Shown here piece after piece: positions 20,901 through 46,803 of a DNA stretch of 64,000 nt. Position numbers and translations under genes: made by a program. Source of the stretch: Anisakis pegreffii (Eukaryota; Nematoda; Chromadorea; Rhabditida; Anisakidae); NCBI GenBank assembly GCA_035041965.1, contig JAPYMA010001453.1, positions 1-64,000 of the forward strand, read 5' to 3'. The notes under the pieces are model-generated. The model searched no databases. It was not told the DNA's origin and saw nothing but the letters and a program-made list of their open reading frames with translations. Numbering within the stretch: position 1 is the stretch's first letter; each line of letters opens with the position of its first letter.

Positions 20901-22255
20901 TCCCATGCTGAATGTATCATATATGGGCGCAATTAAAGTATGGACACCGTTTGCGGCCATATACTTGGAGCATCGCATCAAAAGATTGGGTCGAAAACCT
21001 TTTCTTGTGCTTACACAAGGCTAGTCTCTCACTTAACGACGTTCAAAATCTCAAACTTATGGTACTTGTTCACAACATTCCAACCAGGAATGTAGTTAGA
21101 TCAAAGAAGTAGACCTGACGATTATTATCGGAGATGCTATACGAGAGCTATCTCTGCAACATTCAGATCACTCCTTTGAAATCCTCACGAGGATCGAGTA
21201 CAATTGCGGTACAGCATTTTCGATGTCCCGGATGCTTGATGACTTTTCGCTCGGGCGAAGACGTGCTGTTCAGACTTCTTCAATGCTTTTCTAGATTTCC
21301 AGCTCAGCGTTTGCTTTGATCACTTCGAATAATCTCATTCTTTAGAGAATCGACTTTGCAGGTACGGTTTCCGTGTGCTTCTTGATAATGTTCGCTCTGG
21401 ACGCAGTTGGGAAATTTGATGAATATCATACAATCGCAACCGTTTGTGCACTAATCGGTTAGTGATTGTTATTTCTCGGATTGGTTTTGTCATGATCATT
21501 ATTAAACGTATCGGTTTTAAAATTGGCTACAGATTGTTTTTAAGGTCAATAATTTGAGATTTCCTTGAATAGTTTCGCGCATTTTTGCACCTTAATATTC
21601 ATGAATTTGAGGATATGGTGTTGAAACAGGCTTCGTTTGGATGATCTATAAAGTCTACACCACAGAACTGTTTCCAACGGTTATACGCTCGATAGCTCTA
21701 ACCACATTCAGCATAACAAGTCTCATTGGTAGTGTCCTGGCACCACAACTGGTCTACCTTACGGTGATTATTGCTCTTTTCAGTGCGAAAACATAAACTT
21801 TTCGATTGATAATAATAGCAATTTAAATAAATTACATAATATTTTAGGTATATATGAAGTTCAACTTTTCCCGCACATTTACGGTTTCATTTGCTGAATC
21901 TCAGCCAACGCCTACGTTCTCCAGTGCTGTATAATTGTGATTATTTTTTGTCGCAGTCAATTAAATTTCAGAAATTCTGGCGTCCATCGCCATACGTTGG
22001 CGCAGCGCTGATAACGTTGCTTGCGACCGTTCTCGCGATGATATTGCTTCCGGAAACTAAAGGCAGACCACTTCCCGACAGTCTTCTCGATGTATCTTAC
22101 CAAGCTTATTTCAATCCATCATTTGTTTTTCAATGCTAACTAATTCGAAAATTTTCTTCGTTGATGATTTTCAGACGAAACGATATCATGGCCCGAACCC
22201 CAAACGACATGCCGACAGCAGGCAAGATGAAAGTAATGTGCCGTTGAAAGAATGA
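17976..22255 (+). CDS. Organic cation transporter-like protein (SLC22, MFS)
   Basis: Thirteen exons join in phase: 17976-18056, 18482-18592, 18699 to 18863 (or 18869), 18982-19157, 19406-19553, 19887-20030, 20216-20316, 20554-20692, 20893-21019, 21362-21457, 21630-21763, 21972-22091 and 22175-22255. They give about 540 residues, typical of SLC22. Landmarks in order: a cytoplasmic start with FKKIKKYGRYQ, a large extracellular loop with paired cysteines and NLT, GHISDHFGRK between TM2 and TM3 (about 147-156), EESPRYF after TM6, YTTELFPTVIRSIAL, and LPETKGRPLPD after TM12. I infer a plasma-membrane facilitator of small organic ions; the substrate is unknown. Introns 7 and 9 need GC donors (after 20316 and 21019). 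Exon 7 begins after TTTTCG and so lacks an AG acceptor. An in-frame alternative at 20248 would delete about ten residues. Confidence 0.94.
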
Positions 22256-24448: not shown

Positions 24449-27400
24449 ATGTTATCTGCGTATAAGTCAAGGGATCGATGTTCCCTTCTCCTGTTGATAG
24501 TGGTCATAATCGCATTTTGTGGCAGTGGCCAATCATCACTTCTGCATCCATATGAATGTAAGTTATATGTCGTCGTTCTTCATATTTTGAACTGTTCCAA
24601 CTCTCAATAGCTCTCGAGTGGTCAAAATGTGATCCTTGAGAGTGATTCTGATTTCGTTGTGAGAAATAAGTGCATTGCGGTAAGCTGTGCGGTACAAGCG
24701 TCCAACGAACCGTTCAGAGATGCTAAATGAGAATACAATGGTGTTTTTGACCTCAGGTCTTGAGGCTCTGTTGAACATTCGATGGCTTTTCTAAGTGGGA
24801 TTGGAAGCACATTATTCTGTTTCTGCGAAAGGCGAAAACGAGAAATTATTCGAGGAGCATTATCACTTCATTTGATCGTTTAATCTGAATTCGCAATTAC
24901 TTTCCAATTAGACCAGCAACGTGAACTTCAGCCATGAGGTTCGTGATAACGTTAAGTCATTGCAACAATGTTCGTGATGACATAAGTTCGGATAATTGAT
25001 AAGCGAGGTCACTTCGACAAGACGAAGGGAGCGCATTATTGTAAAACCATTTCGGCGATGCATGCCACGCATACATAAATGCCACTATGTGATTTTACAA
25101 AACGCAAAAGAAGGGTGTGCAAATCGATGAATCAAATCATTCTTTGTGATTTACATATGCCAAAAATAAATAGATGATTTTCGATTCATTTGCAAGCAAT
25201 AAAATCTGTCATCTCGAATTGTTGCGGTGCACCATATCAGTTACTTTTTATTACACTGAAAGACGTCAATAAAAGTAGACATTAAATGCGATGTAAACGA
25301 ACAAGCAAGAAGAATGCTTCTCTTGCGAAAGTTATTTTTTGAAGTACTGATAAATAAGAAGAACGGTGATAAAGCGATTTTTTTGCAAAGCACTGCGTTA
25401 AGCTAGACTTTATGTTTTATGATCAATCACGTTGATTGTTGGTTGCTTCGTTAGAGACAAGAAAAGCTTTTGAAAAATACAATATATTTGAGAAATGGAG
25501 CACTTGGAATTGTGATGTGACGAAACAATAGAACTGCTAGCGATCGATTAGACTTTCTGAATTTCGAGATCATAAAATCCATCGATTCGTTGAGTTTGAA
25601 AATGATGTGTTTCGGTGTTTATTTTGTATTATATATCGAAACACAAAGCATTCATATCATACAAACACAGAAGCGAGGAGATCCTCCAAATAAGATATAC
25701 GAAAGTTAAGTTTCATCATCCGAATCGATAGTGCATGATATCCGTGTACATCTTACAAATGTACAGCTCAAGTACAGATTTAAAAGTTGATTTCACATAT
25801 CGCTTTGGTGTCACTTACGAATCGTCTCTCTCTCGCTTCTCTTTCGCGCTCCGTTGCGACAATGTGAGTACGTCAGGATGGATTCATTCACATTAACATT
25901 ACCGCATCATCTTCACGCATTACCATAATCGTAACCTGAGATGATTGCCCAACTCGTCAATCTTTCATTCTAGTAGAGAATGGCTCATCTCGGACTCTTG
26001 GAAATGAACCGTCTAATTACTCTGTGGCAATGATTCGGAGCAGATCAGTTCAAATAGCTCAAATGACTCGGAAACTTTGGTCAACTTGCAGATGAACATC
26101 AAAAACTGGCATCGAAACCCGACTCATTTCTTCCGGGATCAGTAGGCGAATTGGAGAGACGCATACCACGATACGTTGAACCACTGGATTACTTTATTCG
26201 TATTCGACCATATTTTCCGGAAAAAATCACAAACGCCGTAGCCCATAATAGTAGTATGTGCACAGTTTGTAACTGATTCATTCATTTTATTGCATCTAAA
26301 TATCCAGATCAAAAGTATAGCACTCGACAAACCAGTACCGAAGGTCACGATCAAGACGATTCAACGAACCAATCATAAACTGGTCTTCAAGAATGTCGGG
26401 ATTCCCGTTAATACATTAGCAAAGAATGTGAACCTTCCGTAATCCTAAATTCTGCTCAGTTGGCCTCGCGATCAAAACAGTCGTGTTATGTTCGCTTGGC
26501 GAACAAAAATTGTCGTTAATGACCTCCAGGCCTGATTAGCATTTGTCTTTAGCCAAAGAGAACTGGTCGTCAGTGAAGAAAGCAATTTGATCGACATTCC
26601 ACTGAACTATGATCGTGACCATGCATTAACAAGTCATCATTTTGATGAGAATGCGTTCAGGTCTTAATATGACATTCGACGGTATTTCAACATTCGTTTT
26701 CCGTGCGAATGAGCCAAGAATGAACGTAACCCTTCATTCGTCACGACTCAATTATACCAGCGTCAAGGTAATGCATGGTGATGGTAGTGTTATGGATGCA
26801 AATGCTAACTTCACATTCAACATAACACTTGAGCATATCGTTAGTTCTTCTGCTCTTCAAATCAGATGTTATAGAATAAGGCCTGTGTCAAGAATTCTTT
26901 TCGTCAAAAGTGACTGGAGGATAAGAACTGTGTTCATTTGTCTCAACAATGTACACGTTGATTGTCTAACAGTAAACAGAATTTACCGCAATGTTCTTCA
27001 TGTTCATCTCGATTCGAAGCAGCGATCAGAGTAAATGAAACAAGGAATCAATTTCGAAGCATAAGCATGAGAAGACAAGTCAAAGTCGAAGCATAAGTCA
27101 TTTTCAAGAGCTTTTCGTTGTTCAATTCCCATTGCATGAGAGCTTCTGTGCAAGAAGTCGATCATAATCAATTCAAGCAGTTTTCATGGTCTTTTCATTT
27201 TCAGATCATTCATCTTAAACAAGAACTTGTAACTGATGAAACGTACATGATTCAATTCGTATACAAAGGTGGAATTCACGACTATTTGGAAACTGGTCTT
27301 TACTATTCACCGGTTTGGATAGAAGGCGAAAAAATGTGAGTAATTGCTGTTCGAAGCAGCGATCAGAGTAATTGTTAAATAGGTAATTGTAACGGGTACA

Positions 27401-30400
27401 ATACGAATGAAACGGAATATTTCACCAGATGGAACTCGATTTTCACGCAGTGCTTCATACTGCAAACATTTCTTCTCTAATTTTTGAGCATTTGATGAAT
27501 TTATGACAGACGCTGGAGTTAGTTGAGCTTATGTCCACGCATAGGAAAGGAACAAACAGGTGTGAGCGAATACGGGAAGTCATCACAATATAAGTAAGTA
27601 CTTTTAATCACCTAAATCGCCTGCATGGCGAATACAAGCTGCAGAAATTGGATGCTTTCACATAAAAGCAGTTCGATTGGTTGAAAAGAAACCCCGTGGG
27701 GTGAGTTGGCAGGAAGCTGTGATTGCCTTTCTCATTTCTCCTTCACATATCAATCACTTTCCAGTTGTTTGTCTCAGTGAATCTGATGAATCGAAGTGAT
27801 TTTGCAGTTTTTTGCTCGCAACTCATATGGAACCGGCTCGTGCCAGATGGGTTTTCCCGTGTCTCGATGAACCTGCCTACAAGGCCGTGTTCCACATAAC
27901 GTTGATTTATCCGAAAGGTTTGGTGGCTTTGGCAAATGCCATGGAAAGACCTCCTGTTCCAGTGAAGTATGTCTTCATTAGTTCTCCAATAAGTCCCATT
28001 ATAATTCTACCTGTAGAATCTCCGGGAACTGGAACTGCAGAAAAATTTTGCGAACAAAATTAACTACCTTGATTGATTACTTGAATCCGTGAATCTAATT
28101 TGCCAAAAGCCCTTCTAATAACCTGTTCTCTACAGTTTGTGATGCTTAGATTTGACAAAAGAGTAGATATATCTATGTGATGATGAATGCACTGAAGTTA
28201 TTTGTTTTGGATTCTCAGAAAATTAGGCAATGATGAGACATTTTGAGTAGTCTTATAGCGACTGATTGCTTGATTAGGGTTGATATGGTTGTGGATTGAT
28301 GAATGAAACGATGGACGATCGTAAGGAAATTAGAAGGTAATGATATGATTATGATTCTTTGGTTACAGGAGTTTTCCTAACTGGGATGTGATTCAGTTTC
28401 CACCATCGTTGAGGATGTCCACATATTTGGTTGCATTCGCCATCGGAGACTACGAAAACCAGGAAACATATACTGAGGATGGAACCTTGGTAATTCACTG
28501 ACTTAATCGTGTCGTTGAGATTCGTTAAGTACAAGGAAGTCAAATAGATGGAATTATATTCAAAAGAAAGGAATGGAACAGAAAAAATGTGCATAATCGA
28601 AAGTTGAGATGATTTGTTGAAAAAATCCGTTGAAAATGGATTTTTTGTTCGGATATGAGGGAATAGCTCTAGTGAGTGGAACTCGAGGGGTGGATGAAAT
28701 GATAGCATGATGTATGAAAAGGATGGACTGTTGAATGATTGCACGATCGGAAGTATTGAAATGAGCGTGTATTCATTGTTAAGATTCGCATTTGGGGATG
28801 GCGAGGGCAAAAAAAATACCTCGAATGGGCAAAGACAATTACGCCGAAATGTTTATATCAACTCGGACAATACACTAACTTCAAATATCCAGGAGATAAG
28901 TCAGGTGAACTCGTTTTGCATCGATCCTTTAATTTATTACTTCAGCTCTCGAAATTGCTAACAACCATTATCTAGGCATAGTTTGAGGTTAATTCTTCAA
29001 TCGTACTGGATGATTCAGCAATATATTTTCCCATCAAGTACTTATCCGTAATTCAGTGGCCCCTCACCTCTCCCCCCTTAAGAGAAATAATATCTTTTTG
29101 GGAATTTTTCTCCTGATTGCCTGCCGATCTCGTTTGGATATTATATTGAGTTCAGCTGCCATTCTCATTTTTAATATCTCATGACTAGCGGTAAGAGTGG
29201 CCGTTGACTTATCACTTCTAATAAGCTTCGATATTGCTGTTCAAATGAGTAATGATTTCAGATCAACTTGGAATGCCTCAGTTTGTTGCTGGTGCCATGG
29301 AGAATTATGGTCTTATCATTTATAAATATCAGTATATCTCCTACAATCCGAAGGCACGTTCGAGTAGTTGTATTAGCGAATTTTAGAATTATATTTTCGC
29401 AGTGTAACCATATCTCACCAAAATCTGGTCACTTATATTTTTTGAATAGAGCCAAATATTTCAAACGGACCATCGAGGATGAAGTTGTTCAAGTACGATT
29501 AATTAGATAAATGGTTTTGGAATGAACATTTCTATCACTTCATGGAAAATCTTATCAATGTCGGTCGGAGAGTGTGTATTGTTTGACCAATTAAGGCTGA
29601 CAAATTGCACTTTAATCAGTTGCAAAAAATGCGATGAAAATGAAAGAATCCGTTGAGGATGTCGAATGAGCACCGCAAGGATCAGCGAATGAATGCATAA
29701 AGTTGCCAGCAGCGATGGTGCAAGCCGTGCCTATTTCAGGTTCATTCAACAAAGGTGAAAGAGATGGCCTCAGAGACGATCTGTCATGAGCTATCGCATC
29801 AATGGTTCGGTGACACGGTCACTGCGCAGTGGTGGAGTGACTTGTTCTTGAACGAGGGATTCGCAACCTATTTTCAGACTAAATCACAACTCCTCGCCGA
29901 GCCAGAACAAGCCGATTTCTTGGTTCGTTTTCCATTTTAGACATTTTGAGGTCGGACTCAAAAACTGAACAGATTATTGCTAGGCGTAAGAAATTACTTT
30001 ACGTATGAATCTATACAAATTTTGCTCGTTATGGAGAGATGCCATTTACTATTATATTTGCGTAATTTACATGAGATTTGTTCATTCACCCAGTGCCATC
30101 TTCTATGTTATCAATCACTTCACGGCCATCACACTTCGTTCGTCATAAACAGTTGGAAGCATTTTTCTTAGAATTCTCTGACAAAGAGTTTTTCAAAAAT
30201 GAATTTTCAGAACGGTCAATTTATGGTTAACACAATAGAGCCTGGACTAGCGACAGATGCGAGTATATCGTTATCGCATCCAATATACGATATGAACGGA
30301 CCATTCTTTGATCGTAAGTAGTTTCCTTTGCAATTTGAGGCTTTTCCTTGAAGCTTTTCTATCTAGAGCGCTCATCAAACGGTACGTTCTTGAGAGAAAT

Positions 30401-33400
30401 TTAGAACGCATGCGAAAAATATGCGTTTCAATTCTGATCTCATTCGATCGAGGTTGATTGAACGGGATGAGTGCTTAAGGCTCTGATGGGCGGTGGTCAT
30501 TGGATGTATAGCATTCAATTGAAGCTGTTTGTTTATCTAATCATCGTTCATCTGAAAACTCATACTTTGCCTTCAGCTATCACCTACAAAAAGGGTGGAT
30601 CCGTACTTAAAATGATCGAATCTTTCCTTGGCCCAAAAGTCTTCCGAGACGCGCTTCAGGACTACATCCACACGTATAAATTCTCGAACGCAAATCATAC
30701 ACAACTCTTTGAAATGTTCACAAAAGTAAGTCAACTCATTTTGTTCAGTTCAATGTTCCAATTTTCCAGCATTCAATCGAGTTGCATAAAAGTAACTTCA
30801 AAAAGTGTCCTATAATCAAATTCTAAGCTCCGAGTCCGAGGGTTTTGGGACTGATCTTAAAAAGACGACGAATCTGTTACATTGAATCGGATTTTGGATT
30901 ATTGGTCAACTTCTTGCAACATCTGCATCATCAAAATTCCTTGATTCAAACAACTCAATATCAGTAACATTTGTTGAATTTGTTGGACATTCTCTTTGAT
31001 AGGTACACTCATCCATGATTTCAGGCAGCCCAAAAAGCCGGCATTAAGGATTGGTGTGGTGAACCGATGGATATGAAGCGTTTCTTAGATCCTTGGTTCC
31101 TCCAACAAGTAAGCAGTGCTGGTAATTTCGATTTGATGAGTACGAAAATAAAGTTGTGGTTGTGTAAAAACATTGATCATTGCATCAGACTGAATTGAAA
31201 TTTTTGTTAGATAACTGTACATGCACCGTCCATTGGAACTTTATCAGGACAATAACTTTTGTTTTTCTGGCATTCCGAGTCTACTGTAACACATTATTTC
31301 ATCGGCACTGAAGCAGCTGAAAGAATCACAGTAGATTTCGGCATTAACATCATTAGATCAGAGTGAAAATCACGTCGGTGGATTAATTTAAGCGCAGAAT
31401 GATTTGGATTGCACGTAATTAAGTGGTGCAATAGTTTAAATGAAATTGTTGCTATTTGAAGTGCTTCCCAGTCGTAACGTTGACCAACAATAAGCCGATG
31501 AGTAATTTCACGGTGACGCAACAACCGTTCAACGAGATTTCACGTTTGCCCAACAATACACAGTACAATTATTCCTGGCCAATCCCGTTCTTTTGGAAGA
31601 ATTACAGAACTTATCATATCGATCACACAACTAAACTCAAATGGATGATACCAGGTTTATTTAATTTTCAGCTCTTTTCCCACTATCATTTACAATAAAT
31701 CGCCCCTTTGGCACTGAATTTAAGGCGAATGAATCAAATTGAATACAGTGTTGATCGTTCAGTTAATAGACCAATCAGTGATTCATCCCAGCAGATTATT
31801 AGTCAACGGTCTGGATTTGAAACGTCAAATCAATAGGATGCTGCAGATTGCAAACTCGTCCACGACTGATACTTAGGACACAAATAAGTCCTGGGTTCAT
31901 TTTTTCATAGTTTCAGCTCATGAAACTAGAAAATTTGGTTTCTTTGTGATTCGTATTAAGTGCAGTTGTATATCAACCGAAACGTAGGCTAATGCCAATT
32001 TTCCGGGCGATATTTTTCATTTTTATGTCGCAATTTAGGTGGTTACACTCTGTGGGCGATCTTCAATATGTGCTCTCACTTATTCATATAAACTTTTAAT
32101 TAGCCAATAATATCTTCCAGATTACTACCAATGTCCTTCGCACTCAGCATCAAAATCTGCACTGTCACCCAAACGTGAACCGACGAATTTTGCGCTACAT
32201 TGGGATTTGGGCAATACAGATTCAAAGACATTCATGCGGGTCGAATACGACGATGTTGCTTATGGACGACTTATGAAACAACTGAAAACGAGGCGTGACA
32301 AAGATTTTGGCATTGATGATAAAGTCATTCTGATTGCTGATCAGTTGGCATTTGCAAAGTTAGTCGAATTTATATAAATACATTGAACCAGGTCGATTCA
32401 AATTCCGAACAATGAAGCCTGATGTCGATATTACAGTTGAGACTAAACAGAGTTGTGACCTGTGACCCGAAGATCTGAAGTTAGTGATCTGAAGATCAGA
32501 AGCTGTGTAGTCATTTTATGTGTGAAATAATTAGCGTCTCAGCGACATTTTCAGAACAGATGACAATTGAGAAATGATGAATGTTGAGCAGCATGAGCCA
32601 AACTCGGGGGAACATATTCAGTTGAGAGTGGTTCAGGTGATCAGTGATGAAAATAAAAGTTTTAGACATAACGAAGAGCTTGGCAAGCCGTTCTCGTTCA
32701 AGAAAACGCTCGATTTGATTTCAACAATAATACCAGGCAATGACAGTTACGCAATATTCAAAATCACACAAGGTGTTATCGACAGAATGGAGAAATATTT
32801 CATGGATGGTCCGGATTATCCACTCTTTAAGGTATGTGACTGTTTAATAACTCATCCATTTAGACGTGCTCTTTATGAGTTTCGTAGTTATTAACATTGG
32901 ATCTTCTATTGCTCTTTGCACTATTATCATTTTCATGTCTATTGCAGAAAGGAATGCAAGAGTGGTTAACGGAAAACTACAAAAAATTGGGGTACACTGT
33001 TTCGGACATTTGGGATCCTGAGTGAGTTCGAACCTTTTCAAATAACTTTCATTTTTTGCCTGCAACCTGTTCTGACGATCGAATTTGCCACAGTTTTTTC
33101 ATTTAGCTGGGCGTATCATCGCTGTAATATTTCTCGATTCACGCTTTCAGTATGAGTCGATATCTGATGTTCCCGTATGCGATACGATACGAAGTCAATG
33201 GTTCAATTGAAAAAGCAAAGGAATTATTTGATGGATTCTTGAGGGATTGTAACGGTGTGAAAACTTCTATTGACGACTGCTCAAAGTTGGCACAGTTTAA
33301 TCGAAATCATGATTACTTCATTAGTGTTTTGACAATTATCAACCATCGACTTCATCTGCGTAATTTGTCGTTGTATTCATTGCCGTGATTGTTCAAGGGT

Positions 33401-34496
33401 GAAATTGCTATATATTTAAGAGTGAAACCTGACATACGAATTCCCGTATATTGTGCTGGAGTGCGATTTGGACCTCAATCAAATTTCGATGCCCTATTTC
33501 AATTCTATAAGCAACAGGAACGTGATGAGTACTATTTCTATCATGAATACTACGCAATGCTACAAGGACTGTCGTGCTCAAAAAGGGCTGAAGATATCAA
33601 ACGGTAAAATTTTTTGCTTGTTGCCCTCCTCAACTGTTATTTCCCATCCATATACCGTGGAGCTGTGGTTTGCGAACTCAGTGTTCATTCCTCAAAAATT
33701 TGTCGACGTTGAAAAAAGGGGAAAGCCCCATCGTTCAGTGTTATTCATTGAGTTTATCCGAATGATTTCAGGGTGATTCCACGTTCACTGAATGTCTTCC
33801 GAATGCCGCCCAATCCGAAATATTTCGTACCGCCATTCTCGTTCATAGCAGCTTATCCAGAAGGGAGTCAATTCATGGCTGATTACCTAGAAGCAGACTT
33901 AACTGAAATAATGAGCTCAGACAATTTCGAAGAATACTTGAAGTGGATGACTTCGACTTGGTACTCGAAAGGTCGATTCGATCAGGTAGATCTCTATCGA
34001 TCTCGGATCATTATCAAATCATGCATTATCTGAGTGTCGTAGTTGTGACTGAGAATAATAGTAATATTGAGAATAAGTATCAACTGTGCGATGTAAATTT
34101 ATAGCATGTGTTCTAACTATTAATCACCATTCTATCTGAATTTTTTTAGTGCAATAATTACTTTAAACTAATGAATGCTCCGAATGCTGAATACATTCAC
34201 CGCATTGTCACATTTCAGTCAGTTAGTTTGGTCTAATCGATGTTCTGTGAATTTGATTTTGATGAAGACGGCAACTAAGAAGTTTCCATTGATTTCAGTA
34301 TGTGAAGCTGCAACAAAAAATGGAAGCAAACTTGCCTAACCTGCACTTAGATCAAAAATCCACCAATGAAAAGAGAGAAATCATCGAAAAATATCACAAT
34401 CAAACGTCAGCGCAAGTAGAATGGTGGCAGAAGCATTTTCCGCATATCTGTACGTTATTTGCAGTTGCGATTGAAAGTATCTTTGAAATATTGTAA
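24449..34496 (+). CDS. M1 zinc aminopeptidase, module 1 (catalytically complete)
   Basis: Twenty exons in matched phase encode 1,000 residues: 24449-24557, 26092-26253, 26661-26839, 27205-27335, 27808-27966, 28369-28489, 28784-28904, 29262-29353, 29740-29922, 30211-30313, 30577-30725, 31025-31108, 31462-31654, 32121-32358, 32666-32831, 32948-33021, 33151-33294, 33421-33603, 33772-33985 and 34299-34496. A hydrophobic segment after a short N-terminus (LLLLIVVIIAFCG) suggests a signal anchor. IPRYVEPLDYF opens the M1 fold, FPCLDEP follows, and GAMEN is at about 338-342. The zinc site is HELSH (374-378) with Glu 397 eighteen residues on. The transition-state Tyr is in ITYKKGGSVLKM. The C-terminal half is ERAP1_C-like. 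Expected activity is removal of N-terminal amino acids from extracellular peptides. Intron 8 needs a GC donor after 29353. A donor after 34449 can replace the stop and fuse this module to module 2. Confidence 0.95.
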
Positions 34497-34724
34497 AGAT
34501 ATCATCGTGAATCAATCACGGCCAATCTAGTGAGTGACTATACAAGTAGCTCAAATGGTGGTCTGAAACTTTGAATAGAGCTAAGACCAAGGTGAGCAGA
34601 CACGTTTGATTACGATAGAAGCGACTGCTTTAGCGGTTTTCAAGTGAAGTGACCAATCAGCGGTAACTTCAATGAAGTGTTCACAGTTTTCAAGACGCTA
34701 TCAGTGATTCTGTTCCGTTTACAG

Positions 34725-37700
34725 CTAGAATATTCTACGATCACTTCGCACCAGGATCGCAGGATGTCGAATACTGGCTAGATCGTTTGCCAAAAGAGAC
34801 TTTCAAACCAACTTTATATCACGTCAAAGTACGACCGTATTTTCCCAGCTCGGCCAAATATGAGTGGTACAAAAATCTAACATTCGATGGATCTGTTGAT
34901 GTAAGTTAGTCAGCAAATCGATTCGCTAGATGAGATTTGTCAATTCCTATAGTGTAACAATGAAATGTATGCAAATACTCATAAAATATTTAATAATGAT
35001 AGCAACAGCATTCATATTCAACGACACTGTGTAACAATATCCAATGAATGATTCATTTAAATCATGAACTGATCACGATTTTGACATTGAACGAGTATAT
35101 GGCAACAATGTTCATGTCTCATCCATGGTTAGTATGAAATCCGAACGAACACTTAATTCCTAACAAAGCTTATAAATAATCTGGAGAATGATCTAGGATG
35201 GATCAAAAGATCATCAAATCCATTGTACTTGATGATTATCCGCAATGCCTGCTTAGATATGGATTTGTTTTCAAGATTTGTATGGTTCATAGCATGCAAT
35301 GGCATTGATAGCGATAATAATAGCAATACTAACTTCATTTGTACCAGTTTATGTGCACTAATAAGTGAAGTTTTGTTGATTTGCAGATCGACTTTGAGGT
35401 ATTGAAAAGTGTAACTGAAATAAAATTGAATGCACATCGTATGGTTATCGAAGCGGCAAATATCCGTCTAATTCAACGTCCTACAAATGTCTCATACCAG
35501 ATAGAATCCATTGAAAAGAACTTTACCAATGGTTAGATACTAAATATGTGATACAGAAACACCGATCGATACTTCGTCGAATGCACTCCATCCGAAGTCA
35601 CCGGCAAATCTTTTTTTAATGCCAACTAACAATGTGTGAACACAAAGTTGCGATGTTCATTTACATTACGAACAAATACTTGAAGAACTAACATTTCGTC
35701 TATCATTCCGAAATGATTCCGGCCTCAAGGTTCCAATCACTCGAAAATTTGAGATGGTTTTGCAATGTGTGACTGGAGGAGGGTAGAAACTAACAAAGGG
35801 AAGCAACTAAAATTCTAACTATCACTTCACGCCATCAGACAATTTGCGTTTTTGAAAAAAGAAAGTGTGAATTAGTTGTATATTCAAGCTTTCCTCATCA
35901 TACATTTGCCATCCGGTGTCAACATGGACAAATCAAGCCGATGGACGTTATCGATAAAATACATCGGTTTCATTTACCCACAGGCAACGAAGGGTGTTTA
36001 TTTGAACACGAACTATTTTGAATTCAATGGCAAGATGGCGTTAGTTGACTGCATCATTCTCATTTGTTCATTCAAACGCAATAGCTTCAGACCTTTTACT
36101 GTTGAAGCCACGATTGCTGTTGCAACATTAGCACTAGTACTATGAATATCATTGTTATTATCGGTTCCAATAATGTGATTGTTAAGCACATTCAGAATTA
36201 CACTGTCAGTTTCCGTATCAACCTTATTCATACTCCAGGTATATCTTCTCGACATTCTTTGAAAAAGGACCGAGTGCGCGATCGTTGGTACCGTGTTTCG
36301 ATGAGCCAAGCTTCAAGGCAAAATGGCAGTTGACAATTGATCATCCAGCCGATATGATCGCTCTTGGGAATATGCCCGATGAAGGGTTCACCGTCGCGAA
36401 GGACGATTACGGTTCGATAACTACTGATTTGTTTGAGCTAGTCGAACCAACGAGAATGCCTCTACTGAGCGTTTTTTTTTTCTGAATTCTTCAGTGATGA
36501 TGAAATAAAAGCGAAATGTTTCTAAGGAAATTATTTGATGTTGTGAAAGTAAACGACGGTGTATCAGTTGAAAATTCACAAACCATAAGTTAGTGCAGTA
36601 TATCAAAAATTTCTTGAATCCAGAAGATCCTGATTTTGAACTGAATTGCTTCGTCCTTCTCTTCAGGATGGGCAACGACGTACTTCCCACCAACTCCACC
36701 GATGTCCAGCTATTTGTTCGCAGCTGCCGTTGGTCATTTCGCATCGCTCGAGACCGTCTCAAAGACCGGAGTGCTTGTACGTGCATGGGCATGGACCGGT
36801 ATGGAGCGGTATGCTGAATTTGGACTGAAAGTACGATGATTGCAACTGTTGCTTTGTTTCATATTTTTGCTGGCAAAATGCAAACTTTCGGATGCCATTA
36901 AAATGGTATTTGCTCTAAAAACCAATCTTCGGTTGACAAAACACGGAAGAAATCTTATTTCAGACAGTTGCTGGAACGGTAGATTTCATGGCCACATACT
37001 TTGATTATCCATTCCCGATGCCGAAACTCGGTGAGCTTATTTGTATGACGCAAACAACGATGAATAGGCATTGAGTCTACAACGAAGTCATGAAATCGAA
37101 AGGAAACATCATCGAGTTTAAGAGAATCAACAGAGATCGAAAGCGATTTGAACTTTATCGTTGCATTGATTTTGTGCAGATTCGCATAAAATTGCGCTGA
37201 GGCATTCGGAAATTTGTGAATGTTCAAAGAGCAAAGAGAATCATTTCGTACTTAGATATGTAAGTGTGGACGAATGGATTACTGGACAAGCATTGGGAAG
37301 ACGCATAAATTAATGCGCATTTCATCAAAACTCCAGTCCACACTTTTATTATAACATACATAATCGACCACTTTAACAAATTCCAATTGATATGCATCAG
37401 TGTGTTTGGTGAGATCAGCGACAATAAACGAATAAGGAATGTTTTTTTTGCAGATGCCGTTGCGCTACCACAGTACACATCGAGGAAAGGAGCTGAAGAA
37501 CACTGGGGAGTTATGCATATACAGTATGAACGAGAACTGACTGATCCTCATTACACGACTGGATGGTTGTACTTCTTTGTGGCGAGTTTCTGTGCACATG
37601 AAACTGTTCATCAGGTATTCCACTCCATCTTTTGCTGCTTATTAATTGATTGTTGCCTTTATTCATTCAAACTTCTAATTTTTCTTGTCAGCCATATGCA

Positions 37701-40700
37701 TAATATGATCACTTATGAGTAAAATGAAATTCTGAATGGAATGATCACAACTTGATCTTAAGAAGAACAAATTGCAATATTCGCAGACTGGATTAACATA
37801 GAGGAGGGAATGATATATTCATGGTAGATTGATGATATTGCTATATATACACAGATATAATATAGTTAAGTTGGATTTCGTTTCGTTGATTCAGAGAAGT
37901 TTGATTAAAATTTCGGCAGAGACATTCATTGATTGCAGTGGTTCGGTGATTTGGTAACAACAGCGTTCTTCGATGAAATGTTCCTGAATGAGGCAATGGC
38001 CCAGTACTGGGAGACGAACGGTATTATGTACGCATTCCCGGAACAAGCTAAAATGGGCGTATGTTAATTCTGCTATTCGTGTTTAGTTTGTGCTTTGAGC
38101 ATTGTTTTATCTTGCAATTTATTTGCATATTAAATTATGCTTGGGCATTTATGCATCGAGATAATTTCGAACAGGCGATTTTTTGTAGAAAATGGGCAAA
38201 TTTTTGTGATAGTTGTTGAATCGTTTCCGAATAATTTAACCAATCTGAAAGTATGATGCATGAAAAACAATATGGCAACACATTGTTAGATTTTCTTGAT
38301 ACCGATTTGATTGTGTTGATAATTTAGAAGTTTGAACGTTTCCGCAAGGGAATGGATGGCTTTGCTGTGGATTCATCTCCAGACACTTCAAAACCTGTTA
38401 TTCCTAAGAAACCCAAATATTCAACTGGAATTATCTATGATAAGGTGATTTCAAACGCTTTCTGGAACTCTTCTGTTAGCAATTTTCATTAGAGTTTCTA
38501 TCCGTTCTGTACTGAATGATGTGTGTCGGTTGCATTTTCTATTGAACATTTTGCACTGTTTGATTCTGGTAAGAGGATTCAAAAAAATGTTTGTCATGTT
38601 GCAGAAGTATTTATGACCATCCGAATAAAGCATAACTACTTTAAAAGTCGGAATCATGTTCAGATGAATTGTAGCATTATTATGATTAGTTCGATGCAAT
38701 TTGTTGTAATCCAGTTGCAGTTCTGTCCTCAGTAATTTATTCCAGCTGTAGATAATCCGTCGTTGTCTTGCATAATAATCATTGTGTGTCGCGTTGCAGG
38801 GTGCTACACTACTTCATATGCTCAGCAATACAGTGTCACCTGAAGTTCTACAACTTGGCTTGCAAAAGTACTTGAAAAAGTACAAATATTCCAATGTTGT
38901 TGATAGCGATCTGTGGGGCGAAATAACACAAGTTGGTTGTTTTCTGTTAATTCTTTCCTCTTCTTTTCATTTTCTCTCTAGTTTTGTGAATTTTTCTTTG
39001 GATTCCATTATAGCGTTGAGGGAACATTGTATCTTTGAATTGGATATGTGACAGTGAATGCGTGCGATTATTATGCAAATGACTTTAATTTTTGCAATTG
39101 AAACTTGCGGTACGGTCTGACAAATTTGATAATTTCAACTGAGGGACGCTGCAAATGCCAGTCGCTGGATGAGAAGATTTTGTACGGATCGAAATTTTGC
39201 CACCATGAGCCTAGGAAGCAGAAACAATTTTTCATAGCAAAATTAAATTGATACTTTGGTTGCAATGAATACTTACGTTGGTAAAAAGCTTTGGCTAATC
39301 CAAATTTATGCACATTTGAACGCTCGACAACTGAGATTGATCGTCTAGCAGTGTGAGAAATAAAATGTTGTCTTTCGTAATGTTCATGATAATGGTGAAT
39401 AGCCAAAGTTAACTATGGACAAGCTGAAGGAGAACATTAATTCATTCAATAAACTAATAATCTGCAATTTTGCATCTGTCAAACGTGTTCCAGGCTGCAG
39501 CAACGAAGAATAAGAAAGACTGGGATGGGAAACCGCTTAACGTACAGTTATTAATGGATCCATGGACAAAGCAGGTGAACCACTTAGTTCCATTCGCTTG
39601 TGCCTGTGGCATAGATGTATGAATATTTTTTCTGTATGAAGATTCACGATTCTACATGGAGACTTGCGAACAAACAATTGTTTTCGTTGGATTTGTAACC
39701 AAGAAACATTCCAAGAATAATTTCTTTCAGGCCACATATCCCGTTCTGAAGGTAAGTTATGATGACGCATCCAAACAGGTCACCTACTCACAGGAACCAT
39801 TCATTGTCGATGCTGTGTCAAAGCTGGGCCCAAGTCCTTACGACTATGAATGGATTATTCCAGTGTTCTCTCAAACTGCGGAAGGTAAGCGTCATTTGGC
39901 GACTGGATTGGTAAATTTGCAACAATGTCAACATTGTGGAATTCAATTATCATTGGTATATGTCATGTTTCTTTGCTCGTTGGTGAGCTGCGTGCTCAGG
40001 TTGAGAAATTGATACGATTATTTTGATGAATGGTGAATGCGAACGTTTTGTGCATTTATTTGGATGATTGTTGAAAATAAGTAGCAACGGACGAATGATA
40101 TTTGAGGACGAATGATATTTAATTACTTCACTGGTGCTGATGGCGGCAATCCGAGTGTTTGGAAACGTCCTCTGAATGGCTGGCAAGTGGAGAATGCTGG
40201 TTTCGCGGTAGGTTATTTAGTGAAAATTTGATTGATCTTCTCCGCCTTTGATTGAAGTTGATCCATTGAAATCTGTGTGGATCGGCGAGAAACAATGAAA
40301 GTTTGAGAGCATGATGCGTACCTTTTGAGACAACCCAGAAGAGCTCTTCGGAAATCGTTTTGCTATGCGATTTCAGGGATTCTTCCGTGTTTGGTACGAC
40401 GACGCAACATGGCAACCGATACTGAACCAACTGCAAAGCGATCGAGAAGTATTTGATGAGCTTACCAGAGCGGAATTCATCGCTGATGCAGTTGCCCTAA
40501 GAGAGTGCGTTGATTTCGTTTAGAATTTCTTCGTGGAGATTCTTTTTTTTTTCGTTTTATAAGATCGAGTAGCACAATGATTAGTGTTTTTGAGGTAGGC
40601 GAAAAGTTGATTATGTTCTATAGTATACTCTATTTTATTGTTTCCCATAGTGTTTTCTCTAGTGGATTACTTTCTTTTCTGCAGTATTATTCTCTGTAAT

Positions 40701-43026
40701 CCAGTCAATTATGAAACGGAGCAATTTGTGTAGTGTTATGACTGACTATGAGCAGTTGATTTAAGAAGGTGTTTAATGAGCACTTTGCTAATGATGAATT
40801 GATTGCGGTGTTTTAAGACGAGGTTCACTCGAGTGGAAACGTGTACTGGACTTGGCGCTTCAACTGGAAGGCGAAACTGAGCTAGCACCATGGTATGCTT
40901 TCTCGAAGACATTCGACGAACTCAATAGTATTTCCCAGTCGACCGGCTTCAGCGATGGGGAACGCGAGAAATTCCAGGTCCTCTTCGCTCTTTTCCTCAT
41001 TTTATTTTTCTACAAACTACAAAACGATCGTCATACAGGACGAATAAAAAACCCGGAATTATTTCAGTTGTTCGCACGGAAGATTGTCAAGAATATCTAC
41101 GAGAAGATCGCATGGAAGAATACAACCGACTGGAGTCAAGAGTATGGATTAATTTGATATTGTTTCGCTGAACCAAAAAAAATTCTCAAGAATATCATTG
41201 AAGCTGATTTCATTGGCAATACAGACTGAAAAACGAAATGAATTCTCAAAATCTACAAAAGTCATTAGAATTTGAGGGCTACTCGCTTTTCATTCGACTT
41301 TGTTCAATTGAATGAATGATCAGATGAATTTGATATCGATCTGATTTACTAAAAGATTGACATGAAATGAAAGAAGTGGATCTGCTATGGAAATAAGCAT
41401 TTTAGCATGCTTGCATCTTATATAACTGAATGGGCATGTGATGCGAACTTACCACAATGTCGCAGCGATGCAGCAGAGAAGCTGAATACATTCGCAAGGG
41501 ATTGTGAACATTCCAAGTCTGGTACAGGTATCTGCAATAGGTACGTGATACCAGCTTATTATTATTATCATGCTCTTGTGCTATCAAACTTGGGCAAGAA
41601 GTTATAAGATGATTCGCTCGACTCGACTGCATAGAAAGAGTGTTTTGACGGAGTGAACTGAATGAATATGAAATTCTGTTGAGCTACACGAAACGATTTC
41701 GTCAGATGAGTCTTGCCTGAAATTCACTTCTAACTGATTATCGAGCACACCAGGGAACGTGTGTTCTGGCTTGATTTGGGTGACTTTTAAGCTTAAATGC
41801 AATTGCATTTAGATAAGTTCATGAATAACTTGATGGATGATATATAACTGTGTTGTTGTTATTGTTGTTTGGTGAATAATTGTTTCACTTGACTGTGTTC
41901 AGTTGAGTGAATGAACAGATGAATTTGATATCAAACTGATTTACTAAAAGATTGACATGAAATGAAAGGTGTGGATCTGTTATGAAAAAAATCATTCTAG
42001 TATGCTTGCATCTTATATAACTGAGTGGGCATGTGAACTTTATGAGTTTTGCACGATTTCATTTGATCACGTCTTGAGGTTTGGTTAAACTTGTTTCACT
42101 CTCCAGAGTATCACCGAACGTAAGACGCACACAATACTGTTGGGGCACATTCATGAATGCAGATCAAAATAATGTTGTGGCAAAGATGTACGATTGGTTC
42201 GTAGAGAACTCGAAATATTTCGAACGCGATGCGGATAACCTATTAGAAGGACGATCGTGCACACAGAATGCAGATAAATTCAATGAGTGAGTATTATATG
42301 GTATAAGTATTTGATGATGAATATTTCTTGATGAACCTAAATGAATGTTCACTCGATGAAATTAGATGATAGCACGTTGGAAACGTCCAAAGAGACATTA
42401 TTCACTGGCAAAGTTTAAAAATTCTATGTTGAAGCCTTATACAACGAACGTTGTCCGGTGAACTACCCGCAAAGACACTCGAATATCTTGGAAAACACGA
42501 CGAGACGGGTCAACGTCTTTGGGAATACTTCAATAAAAATACCGATGAGATCATTTTCGGTGTTCCAAGTGTTCTGGAATATATGAATGCTGCAATGGCT
42601 AAATGGAGCACAAGCAAAGACAAAGATCTGGTAGAGTATTGTTCTAATAAGGATCGAATCTCTTTCTCAGAGAGAAATGTTGTGAGAATTCTTACTAACA
42701 ATGCGAAAACAAGCAAAATTTGCACCCTAACTGTTTCTGCTGATAACAGATTCATATGTCAGCTGGATGAAATCTGGTTGAACAATGACGAGTTAATTTA
42801 TCGAATTAGCACCGAGCACGTATCAGATCACTTACAGATTTATAACCAGCAAATTCTGTTTCAGGTCACTGATTTCATGAAGACCTCAAGTTTGTTATCA
42901 GAGGACAATAAGGAAGAAATTTCTAAAGCCTTATCAAATCTGGACAAGAGAATAGACTATATCGCTGCTAACAAGCAATCCATTGTTGACTGGCTCGGAT
43001 CAAACTTGCATCGTTTTTTTGAATAA
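34725..43026 (+). CDS. M1 aminopeptidase-like module 2, probably fused to module 1
   Basis: Nineteen exons: 34725-34900, 35387-35531, 35889-36039, 36239-36411, 36667-36830, 36964-37030, 37454-37614, 37939-38058, 38328-38444, 38800-38931, 39494-39574, 39731-39884, 40107-40207, 40377-40504, 40818-40977, 41068-41141, 41406-41540, 42107-42286 and 42435-43026. They encode about 1,003 residues of a full M1 fold (VPCFDEP, PPTPPMSSYLFAA, ERAP1_C-like tail). The zinc site is intact: HETVH, with the Glu of NEAMAQYW eighteen residues later. The Tyr of GIIYDKG is present. GAMEN is replaced by GAEEH, so N-terminus recognition may be altered. No in-frame ATG or signal peptide occurs at the start, and the first exon needs one base from upstream, which module 1 supplies through the donor after 34449. 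The last exon contains a 234-nt intron-like segment at 42631-42864. A separate gene with an unseen first exon is the alternative. Confidence 0.92.
41288..41450 (+). repeat. Source copy of a duplicated intron-exon block
   Basis: This 163-bp block holds the end of an intron, its TTTTAG acceptor and the first part of the exon at 41406. It matches 41883-42040 over most of its length, with scattered substitutions and small indels. Confidence 0.88.
41883..42078 (+). pseudogene. Duplicated partial exon inside an intron of module 2
   Basis: 41883-42040 is a diverged copy of 41288-41450, including an acceptor (TTCTAG before 42001) and the codons for MLASYITEWAC. Beyond the duplicated part, the frame stays open to AG followed by GTTTGG at 42078/42079. 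This leaves the same phase as the donor of the authentic exon (ending 41540). It could therefore be a decayed copy or a usable alternative exon of 78 nt. The authentic exon carries conserved cysteines that the copy lacks, so I favour decay. Confidence 0.6.
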
Positions 43027-43135: not shown

Positions 43136-43141
43136 AATAAA
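43136..43141 (+). terminator. Poly(A) signal of the M1 locus
   Basis: AATAAA lies 110 bases after the stop codon at 43026. No AATAAA is present between the module 1 stop (34496) and the first exon of module 2 (34725), which agrees with one transcription unit. Confidence 0.6.
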
Positions 43142-45996
43142 GTTTTTTCTGGCTACTTGAAAATGTATCTGTTGACATTCAGAATTGCTTGCAGAGGATG
43201 TTACGTTCAGGAATATGCATCAAAAGATTTCAAGTGTAGTTAAGATCTGTAACGAAACTAGTGCGATTCTGAGCACATGGTTTACCGATAAATTTTACTG
43301 ACAATGAGAGTGAATAATTCGTGAGCATAGAATTAGACTGATTGGTACACCAACTCAGAGCAGCTCATTGAGACAGCAAAACATTTCTGTAATTAATGAG
43401 CTTAGCTTTGGATAGAGAAAAGAACGCCTGGCAAGGTAATCGTGAATGCAAAGTTTTGATGAGATGGAACTGAAATTGAGAAAAAATTCATCTCATTTAA
43501 AAAACATTACATCGTTATCTCACAGTTTTTCCTAAAGTCCACACAGAAATCTGAAACGCTCTCTTGTGATGAATTGGCGATGGCGATATTGTGCTATAAC
43601 ATTGCTTACGATTCAATTATAGGCGAGTTGAGTTGATAGTGTCGGAAAGCAAAGAAGAGATCACAATTGGGACACAGAATCCTTGGACAATTGGGAATGA
43701 GAGTAAGTCAGTGATGCGTTTGAAGTAAATGAGAAAAATTGCGCAATAGAATGGAACTGTAATGCAAATGTTGATGTCAAGCATAAGAGTAATGAAACAT
43801 TGGGCGAACTAGAAATGAAATTCACTGAATGACTATAACATGGAAGATGCACATGTGAACATGTAAACAGGGCGCACCTTGTGAATACCTGCTTCTGAAT
43901 GACGCTAATTCCTCTGTTCTCTATTCATTCATCATATTCTCTCCTCGATTTTTAAGCCCGATTCCCATGATGTCTCACCACTCTCAGACCTTATTTTGCC
44001 GATTGTGTTACGCTTCCATGATGTCTAGACACAATTCTCGTTCATTTTTAACGTATCATGCATTCGCTCTCATTCATATTCCCTCTCACATTTTCTACTC
44101 CAAACATTTCTCTACATCGCATCTCTAATGCAGTTGGGTTTTCACTGAAAATAATGTGTAAGAAGATTTGCCACACTGCAACACAATTGTTGACGTGCAT
44201 AATGTTTGGAACTCATATAATGATAAGATCACCGCTTATATCACAGAGCTAAGTCATCACTTTATCAAATTCGAACTCACGCATGTGCTGAGTTCCAGAT
44301 GAACAAGAAACAAGCAAAATCACACTTGATACGTCTCGTTTCTTCAAAAGGAAGGTTTTTGATGAACGACACGCAAAAATATTTGCTATTTGTGCGAAGA
44401 ACGCAGTTGGTGATGTTATGGATCAGCAGTACCTCAGACAAACGAGTTGAGTGAGCACTGTCACACAAACCAAGGAAAAAAGCAAACAAAAATATGAAAC
44501 TCACGAGTTGTTTGCTGTTGCTTTCAGCTGTGTAACTCTCATATGATTCGCCTTTAGTCAGATTATTCTACCACAATGATCACCTTTACAACTGAAAAAG
44601 TATCAATTCATATTAATCGTAGTAGTCGCTTGTCATTATGCTTATCAGTATTAATAGTGTGACTGATTAGGATGAAAGGTCATTCAGTTGAACGCGAGTC
44701 AATTCTATTCACTCACTGATCTGTTGTTGTCTTCGATAATTATAATAAGATCTTATTAAGAGCATACGTTCATACTTATGCCTTTCCATTATCCCTGAAT
44801 ACCTCTCAGAATCGTTTCTGCATGTTGGCAGTTGGCAGTTTTGTAGAATTCCATTGGTTTATACTGTCTTGATTCTTAATTCTTCAATCCTCTGCTAGCA
44901 GTAAAGTCGGAGCTGGAGAGCAACTTGTTCAAATGAGTAATGACTCGGCATGTATTGAAGCAAATGAAATAATATGGGATGGTAGTGTTGTTATTGTTGC
45001 TTAAATTGATTAATGCTCGTCGGTGTTATCCATTATCTCCGTTATCTCTGCAGTTTTCTCTGCTATTGATTATTTGCCGAAAGCTTCGCTGAAACTGTCA
45101 TTCCTGTTGGCTGATAGTTTTAACATTTAATGTTTTATCAGCGCTATTGCATCAATATCATTCTCTTCTATCGATATCAAGTTTTACTACCCAAAGCATT
45201 TTGTTCATAATCCAATGTGGAATTTTGTTTAACTTCGGATTTGTTGAAAGTTTCATAGCAGATGAAACTGTGACCAAATGCTGGTTATGAGATCGAGGAG
45301 TAGTACTCAATTAACATGGATGGATTAATTTGATGTTTGCTTTCAGAATTCATTGTATGAATCAAACTATAATGATTTACATTTCAATGCGTTTATCCAA
45401 ATGCCCATTCAGTGTTGATTTATTGGTAATGAAGAACTCGAAAATGATAGATGTTTGATGAGTATAAAACGATGAATTGAGGATTGTATTTTAGAATGTA
45501 CATTAGTTATGCTGTGCCATATGACACTAATCGTTCAGCTTTTCAATGAGTTTTCATTTTTTTAAACCATAATCGTTAAACATTTTATGGCTGTTTTCAA
45601 AGAGGAATACAAATTTTCAAATGTCGTCGCTTTTCTATGGCAAACGTGAATAAGCACTGAGCTAATCGAACCTATAATATTGTGTTTGGATTTTTTATTA
45701 TAACATTCGAATCGCTTTTGAATCGTGTTTTATTGATGAGAATCCAATTGTACAGAATCAATTCTTTCGATTCGATGCATTTGCAAGCTGACAGACATAT
45801 ATTAACGCATTTCGAAAGGTGTCTAATGCAAATGCTGATCTGATTCACGTATATCACTCATGCATTCAACTGATATGGCATATTAACGATTGAAGTATTC
45901 ATTCTTGACAACGTAACGGCTAATATGTTCAGTATTTGATTATGACAGTGGAAATATTATCGCATTTACAGACTGAAGGAACGAAATAGGGCTGGG
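43142..45996. other. Intergenic, no gene recognised
   Basis: About 2.9 kb. The best ORF, 44277-44504 on the minus strand, follows a CAG and contains several cysteines, but it has no ATG or partner exon and does not resemble a known family. Other ORFs of about 60 codons are unsupported. The right end should hold the promoter of the Ly6-like gene. Confidence 0.4.
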
Positions 45997-46803
45997 ATGC
46001 GTCTTATAAGTATTTTTCTGTTGGTCATCCTTGTCAGCACAGTTACCTCACTGACGTGCTATAATGGATTTTCAATTATACGAGGACAATCAGTGGGTAC
46101 ATCCCAAGAGGAATGTGCAAGTGATTCAGAATCTTGCTACCGCATGACGGCAACTGTCAATTTGTTTAGCTCTGTCAAAAAAGCGGGATGCTCTAAGTAC
46201 AGATGTATGGTGAGTTTGTGTCGCTTTTTTTGGCCAATCGCAGTGAAATTTACAAGTTGTTTTTTGAATTGCGTAATTAATTATATCGTTAACATGTGAC
46301 TGTTTGAAGTGCAACAATAATGAATTATGTCAAATGCAACTCATTCATTCGACGGATTTTATCAGAGGGATGCTGGAATCATTATATGATCACCGTTTTG
46401 ATCATTATATCATTTGATGATACGACATGAAATGATAATTCATCAGTTGAAGTTTTGAATTGTCTATGGGCATGCAATAATTGAAATTTTGAGAAAATAA
46501 CTTATTTCAACGATAGTGGGACCGAATGAATGTTGAGCATCGAAACTTTTTGATACGATCGGCATTTTAAGTCAAAACTTGGATTGTCCTCCTCGACACA
46601 ATAGAAGGAGACTGCGGTGAGAGTGAAACTGATTTCAGTTCAATCGCAACGATTGTCTAACGCAAAATCTGATGGGAAGTGATGTGCAATTCTGTTGTTG
46701 TGATGATCATGACCTATGCAATGCGGCCTACTCACCGAATAGAATCAGTTCGATTCCGCTCTTAATTCCACTTTTAATTATTTCAGTTTTGGGTTTGATT
46801 TAA
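45997..46803 (+). CDS. Ly6/ET-module-like GPI-anchored surface protein
   Basis: Two exons, 45997-46209 and 46639-46803, join in phase 0 (GTGAGT donor, TTTCAG acceptor) and encode 125 residues. The order is a signal peptide (ISIFLLVILVSTVTS), a cysteine-rich domain starting at TCYNGF, ten cysteines in total, the diagnostic end FCCCDDHDLCN, and a hydrophobic C-terminal tail (IPLLIPLLIISVLGLI). This layout is that of three-finger or nematode ET-module proteins, and the tail suggests a GPI anchor. Such proteins sit on the outer cell surface. No partner or ligand can be inferred. The start is the first ATG in front of the signal peptide. Confidence 0.88.

What the first reader, a model, noticed from the sequence alone, without database searches (positions are those of the whole stretch)
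24449..43026. Two M1 peptidase modules probably encoded as one tandem protein
Module 2 has no ATG, no signal peptide exon and no separating poly(A) signal. Its first exon (34725) needs one base from upstream. A GTACGT donor after 34449, inside the last exon of module 1, supplies that base and avoids the stop at 34496. The joined frame gives about 1,988 residues with two full M1 folds. Keeping the intron gives a 1,000-residue single-module protein with a short hydrophobic end. One gene could thus make a one-module and a two-module ectopeptidase.
Basis: partly seen in the sequence, partly recalled or inferred. Interest (0 to 1): 0.8.

Follow-up and report, generated by a model that had tools for sequence, protein, structure and literature searches.

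The report
Two-headed worm peptidase gene, confirmed
In this parasitic roundworm one gene encodes a single protein with two complete peptidase units in a row; the same two-unit gene is found in many roundworms, so the join is real but not new, and the more unusual feature is a changed active-site motif in the second unit.

Summary
34449^34725 fuses two full M1 modules in one frame: 40 exons (24449-43026), 1907 aa, no internal stop.

The contig carries six A-B units, always A before B. All six have a phase-1 donor and acceptor at the same aligned place, although the joint introns (136-637 bp) no longer match each other. The joint lies inside module A's last helix: the first ~9 residues coded by "B's" first exon complete module A. 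An annotated Anisakis simplex protein crosses the joint of the orthologous U6 gene. Tandem proteins of about 1,850-1,890 aa are annotated in many nematodes. A and B modules form two separate, largely parallel clades.

The one-module isoform is not supported: the six hypothetical retained tails differ, and module A would lose its helix end.

The more interesting part is module B. It keeps all zinc ligands, but reads GAEEH instead of GAMEN in four of six units and in relatives from Toxocara, Parascaris, Ascaris and Syphacia. The genome is Anisakis or very close to it.

The parts
24449..34449 (+). Module A, 20 exons (982 residues): hydrophobic N-terminus, M1 N-domain, catalytic domain, ERAP1-like C-domain except the end of its last helix
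   Evidence: gene model; Pfam PF17900, PF01433, PF11838
29291..29305 (+). GAMEN exopeptidase motif of module A
29785..29799 (+). HELSH zinc site of module A, with E 18 residues on
29354..29355 (+). GC donor (GCACGT) of the exon 29262-29353, the one non-GT donor of the model
   Evidence: U2's model also shows GC at this exon
34299..34449 (+). Last module-A exon; reads on to TAA at 34494-34496 if not spliced
34450..34724 (+). Joint intron, 275 bp, phase 1, GTACGT...TTTACAG
34725..34900 (+). First exon counted to module B; its first ~9 codons (SRIFYDHFA) complete the terminal helix of module A
34725..43026 (+). Module B, 20 exons (925 residues), second complete M1 module; stop TAA 43024-43026
37489..37503 (+). 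GAEEH in place of GAMEN in module B
37597..37611 (+). HETVH zinc site of module B; the glutamate 18 residues on is 37990-37992, in the next exon
40978..41067 (+). In-frame 90-bp intron in my model; the A. simplex protein P0232 reads through it
42631..42864 (+).
43136..43141 (+). AATAAA after the stop of module B

Best explanation
24449-43026 is one protein-coding gene of an anisakid nematode. It makes a single polypeptide of about 1,907 residues with two complete M1 metallopeptidase modules, A then B. The intron 34450-34724 is an ordinary constitutive intron that sits inside module A's last helix. The gene is one of six A-B paralogues on this contig and belongs to an old nematode family that arose by duplication of an intron-bearing M1 module. 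Shown: open frame, six-fold conserved joint, homologues, retained zinc ligands. Inferred: entry into the secretory pathway, and two working active sites of which A is a typical aminopeptidase and B (GAEEH) has changed substrate recognition.
For: Open 40-exon model; both modules match PF17900, PF01433 and PF11838 over nearly full profile length. Six A-B units with the same phase-1 joint. Joint residues align in 21 chosen tandem homologues of the 129 found. A. simplex P0234 carries U6's joint residues NYFPIV-SRAFYDDF. The first residues of the B exon align with the canonical C-terminal helix of B, fish APN and H11, and AlphaFold2 of P0234 puts one helix (302-338) across the joint at residue 330 (mean pLDDT 77). 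27 A and 27 B modules are each one clade, SH-aLRT 100. 12 intron positions are shared by A and B, 11 of them in phase. HExxH-18-E and the Tyr are kept in 12 of 12 modules.
Against: No RNA evidence was available. The homologues are mostly gene predictions. Models of U2-U6 have unsure first and last exons, and U4's doubtful first exon shows one stop. P0232 disagrees with my model at 40978-41067. B's HExxH is lost in 2 of 21 homologues, P0011 and P0030, so B can be dispensable as an enzyme. Another A. simplex prediction, P0129, mis-joins two neighbouring genes. pLDDT falls to 69 just after the joint.
Confidence: 0.93

Rival explanations
1. Two genes, possibly in an operon: module B is a separate transcript, trans-spliced at 34725.
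For: The B acceptor is strong; nematodes use operons and spliced leaders (recalled). U3 and U4 have an in-frame ATG upstream of the B exon, and U2 and U5 have an AATAAA in the joint intron.
Against: No ATG in this unit's B exon or in frame before it; the exon begins with the end of module A's helix; tandem proteins in many nematodes run through the joint; no hydrophobic stretch at the joint. B-type proteins of single-module length that I read are fragments: P0232 begins inside B, P0236 inside the end of A.
Confidence: 0.03
2. Alternative products: the intron is kept in part of the transcripts and gives a 997-aa one-module protein.
For: The frame stays open for 15 residues to a stop.
Against: Tails of the six units are 15, 3, 2, 29, 11 and 12 aa and unlike; no AATAAA/ATTAAA in this intron; module A would lose its helix end. 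A retained-intron transcript polyadenylated after B would be a likely target of nonsense-mediated decay (general knowledge).
Confidence: 0.07
3. Assembly or annotation artefact: two single-module genes joined by chance.
For: Public A. simplex annotation of this cluster is fragmented, and P0129 is a chimera of U3's B end and U2's A start.
Against: The same A-B order and phase-1 joint occur in six units on both strands of one contig and in other genera.
Confidence: 0.01

Closest known systems
Tandem M1 proteins of nematodes (Toxocara canis P0001, P0002, P0004, P0008; Parascaris P0003, P0007; Ascaris suum P0005; Syphacia P0006; Caenorhabditis P0015-P0017)
   Same: Two complete M1 modules in the order A-B, joint at the same residue, about 1,850-1,890 aa where complete; U1 is closest to P0001 (57% identity in A, 63% in B)
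   Different: Database names are generic (aminopeptidase N, TRH-degrading ectoenzyme). P0001 reads AAMEH where U1 B reads GAEEH.
Haemonchus contortus H11 aminopeptidase cluster (PMC4176091, passages seen)
   Same: M1 peptidase genes side by side in a nematode genome; HELAH and GAMEN
   Different: Five genes that the paper treats as one M1 protein each, with a predicted transmembrane domain and GAMEN conserved in all; here six two-module genes, and GAEEH in four B modules
Tandem or longer M1 proteins of insects, molluscs and rotifers (P0031 to P0043, P0064, P0066, P0071)
   Same: More than one M1 module in one chain
   Different: The stick-insect and mollusc modules group with each other, not with nematode A or B, so they are independent duplications; hymenopteran and rotifer proteins of ~2,700 aa were not put in the tree
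Mammalian APN / ERAP1 / ERAP2 / IRAP (solved structures)
   Different: One module per chain; GAMEN, not GAEEH

Membership tests
Peptidase family M1 (module A) | HExxH followed by Glu after 18 residues | tested here: met
   6 of 6 A modules
Peptidase family M1 (module A) | GxMEN exopeptidase motif | tested here: met
   GAMEN in 5 of 6 A modules, this one included; U2 has GAVEN
Peptidase family M1 (module B) | HExxH followed by Glu after 18 residues, and the Tyr of the xxYxKG segment | tested here: met
   6 of 6 B modules
Canonical M1 aminopeptidase (module B) | GxMEN exopeptidase motif | tested here: not met
   GAEEH in U1, U4, U5, U6; RAMEN in U2, KALEN in U3. B is M1 by fold and zinc site, but is not filed as a canonical aminopeptidase.
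Nematode tandem-M1 proteins | Two complete modules in one open frame, A before B, joint at the same residue | tested here: met
Nematode tandem-M1 proteins | One mature transcript across the joint | not testable with these tools
   no RNA reads at hand; an annotated A. simplex model of U6 crosses the joint
H11-type single-module cluster | One M1 module per gene, GAMEN conserved | tested here: not met
   two modules per frame in six units; GAEEH in four B modules
Operon with a separate downstream gene | Downstream cistron with its own start codon | tested here: not met
   no in-frame ATG in or directly before the first B exon of U1; U3 and U4 do have one upstream

The most novel reading that the evidence does not exclude
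Module B of the ascaridoid and Syphacia proteins is a re-specified second active site. It keeps all zinc ligands and the catalytic tyrosine, but a fixed GAEEH replaces the GAMEN that binds the substrate's N-terminus. One secreted chain would then carry two different peptidase specificities on a rigid helical joint, trimming a peptide in two steps. U1 B is as well kept as U1 A against its Toxocara relative (63% against 57% identity), which speaks against decay.
Probability: 0.35. Interest if true: 0.6.

Novelty: new member of a known kind. Interest (0 to 1): 0.36.

Why it matters
The case settles a gene-model question with sequence alone: six paralogous joints and a terminal helix split by an intron show that the two modules are one protein. 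Public A. simplex models of this cluster are fragmentary or mis-joined, so work on Anisakis gut or secreted peptidases should use the two-module form. The GAEEH motif makes a specific question testable: can an M1 site without GAMEN still cut peptides, and which ones?

Tried and rejected
I read five of its hits in full (P0232-P0236). P0232 and P0233 begin inside module B; P0234, P0235 and P0236 begin in module A sequence. The other hits were not read, so stand-alone B genes elsewhere are not excluded.

The draft exon choices that relatives did not support were changed: the exon pair at 31108/31462 and the acceptor at 32666. The automatic model put micro-exons at 25732, 26553, 31803 and 34227 and a GC donor at 40964; I replaced these by hand in the final model.

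Branching of A and B is not fully parallel: Parascaris P0007 pairs with U3 in the A part but lies outside U3+U2+T. canis P0008 in the B part, and Syphacia P0011 also moves. The tree is a quick one with SH-aLRT only and a midpoint root.

Whole-genome search with the B protein, to see whether tandem pairs lie on other contigs, did not complete. One search shows PF01433 hits on ten other contigs that I did not model.

Literature: nine searches listed no paper that I recognised as describing tandem M1 proteins of nematodes or GAEEH in an M1 peptidase. The library lacks most subscription journals. That C. elegans T16G12.1 is a tandem protein, and that the A. suum UniRef F1K entries come from transcripts, is recalled and not checked. 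Whether the A. simplex peptidases named in PMC9027741 belong to this cluster was not tested.

Full report
What was checked. The window is contig C945:1-64000 of a 122.7-Mb genome in 1740 contigs. I read the region and built the gene by hand and with a spliced alignment of tandem relatives. The final model has 40 exons, 24449-43026, 1907 residues and no internal stop; 38 of 39 introns start GT and one GC. Both modules match the M1 N-domain, the M1 catalytic domain and the ERAP1-like C-domain.

The donor after 34449, the acceptor before 34725, the stop at 34494-34496 and the missing ATG are all as described. The length is not. All six modelled units have an intron there, and the annotated A. simplex protein P0232 splices it. 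P0232 in turn reads through 40978-41067, which I splice; all six units are modelled with an intron there too (column 775).

Six copies. tblastn of the two drafts on the complete 160,521-bp contig finds six A-B units, two on + and four on -, always A upstream of B (Pfam exon hits). Spliced alignment gives tandem models of 1849-1899 aa for the six. First and last exons of U2-U6 are unsure, and U4 shows one stop in a doubtful first exon.

The joint. In 6 of 6 units the donor lies at the same aligned base, phase 1, and the acceptor is phase 1. Intron lengths are 275, 637, 318, 136, 475 and 465 bp for U1-U6; none of the 15 pairs gives a blastn match at E 1e-3. The acceptor is the best-scoring AG in its neighbourhood in 6 of 6; the donor is best in 4 of 6, third in U1 and fourteenth in U2. 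Results that weaken a simple 'no ATG, no poly(A)' argument: U3 and U4 have an in-frame ATG upstream of the B exon, U2-U6 have in-frame ATGs inside it, and U2 and U5 have AATAAA in the joint intron. An AATAAA within 300 bases after the model end was found only for U1.

Relatives. A search limited to long proteins found 129 hits, of which 120 were listed, among them tandem proteins of Toxocara, Parascaris, Ascaris, Syphacia, Steinernema, Necator, Caenorhabditis, Panagrellus and Rhabditophanes. In 21 that I chose, the sequence runs through the joint. The A. simplex protein P0234 carries U6's joint. A. simplex proteins match the contig closely: P0232 551 of 605 identical to U1, gaps included; single exon blocks of P0129 and P0234 reach 97-99%. 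So the genome is Anisakis or very close. P0129 is a public mis-join of U3's B end with U2's A start.

History. In a tree of 65 modules, 27 A and 27 B each lie on one side of a branch with SH-aLRT 100, and most ortholog pairs recur in both halves (U1 with T. canis P0001, U4 with P0002/P0003, U5 with P0004/P0005). P0007 and P0011 are exceptions. Stick-insect and mollusc tandem modules group with themselves. A and B share 12 intron positions, 11 in the same phase, out of 18 (A) and 20 (B) found in at least three units. The pair therefore predates the split of these nematode lineages and stems from an intron-bearing module; whether by duplication within a gene or by fusion of neighbours is open.

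Active sites. HExxH-18-E and the tyrosine are kept in 12 of 12 modules. A reads GAMEN in 5 of 6 (U2 GAVEN). B reads GAEEH in U1, U4, U5 and U6, RAMEN in U2 and KALEN in U3. Of 21 homologues, 5 have GAEEH in B (T. canis P0002 and P0004, Parascaris P0003, A. suum P0005, Syphacia P0006), one has AAMEH (T. canis P0001), and two have lost B's HExxH (Syphacia P0011, Rhabditophanes P0030); A keeps HExxH in 21 of 21. Among all 342 proteins fetched, a pattern search finds GAEEH in six, all in nematodes of this group. Against T. canis P0001, U1 B is 63% and U1 A 57% identical, so B is not decaying faster than A.

How it most likely works. Inference: the protein enters the secretory pathway by its N-terminal hydrophobic stretch (residues 14-32, the highest hydropathy of U1; no comparable stretch elsewhere). 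Module A acts as a typical aminopeptidase. Module B has a zinc site but a changed exopeptidase motif. In mammalian M1 enzymes the GAMEN glutamate binds the substrate's free amine and the methionine lines the first pocket (recalled); B keeps that glutamate and changes its neighbours to E and H, so altered specificity is more likely than loss, but neither is shown.

One-module isoform. Keeping the joint intron gives 997 aa in U1. The six hypothetical tails are 15, 3, 2, 29, 11 and 12 residues and not alike. Nothing points to a conserved second product.

Literature. H11 genes are five neighbours with HELAH and GAMEN conserved (PMC4176091, passages). RNAi of C. elegans T16G12.1 lowers brood size (PMC6857582, one passage). 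An A. simplex proteome paper names M1 proteins in cuticle and an aminopeptidase in intestine (PMC9027741, passages); their link to this cluster was not tested. Nine searches found no description of nematode tandem M1 proteins.

Verdict. The join is real, with a corrected length. It is a new member of a known, so far little described kind. The interest lies in the six-gene cluster and the GAEEH second site.

Noticed in passing
G000:C945, 24.4-160 kb (window 24449-43026 and L009-L018): Six tandem two-module M1 genes fill most of the contig, two on + (U1, U6) and four on - (U2-U5).
   Followed up: yes
window 37489-37503: GAEEH replaces GAMEN in module B, as in U4-U6 and in relatives of Toxocara, Parascaris, Ascaris and Syphacia, with the zinc ligands kept.
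   Followed up: partly
window 29354: GC donor (GCACGT) at a module-A intron; U2's model shows GC at the same exon, U3-U6 show GT.
   Followed up: partly
G000:C945 82-83.7 kb and 73.9-79.5 kb: The public A. simplex protein P0129 mis-joins the end of U3 with the start of U2.
   Followed up: yes
C1629, C1069, C1129, C117, C958, C962, C34, C667, C39, C1309: Further M1 exon hits on ten other contigs; C34 and C958 have exon limits like those of module B.
   Followed up: no
window 11406-11738 (-): Open frame with a weak chemoreceptor match (Srt, E 1e-4, just under its cut-off).
   Followed up: no
window 19812-20117 (+) and 21858-22136 (+): Exons that look like a sugar/organic-ion transporter; the first has a weak Sugar_tr match under its cut-off, the second none.
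   Followed up: no
window 45946-46296 (+): Small cysteine-rich frame with a hydrophobic start; weak CD59-type match under its cut-off.
   Followed up: no
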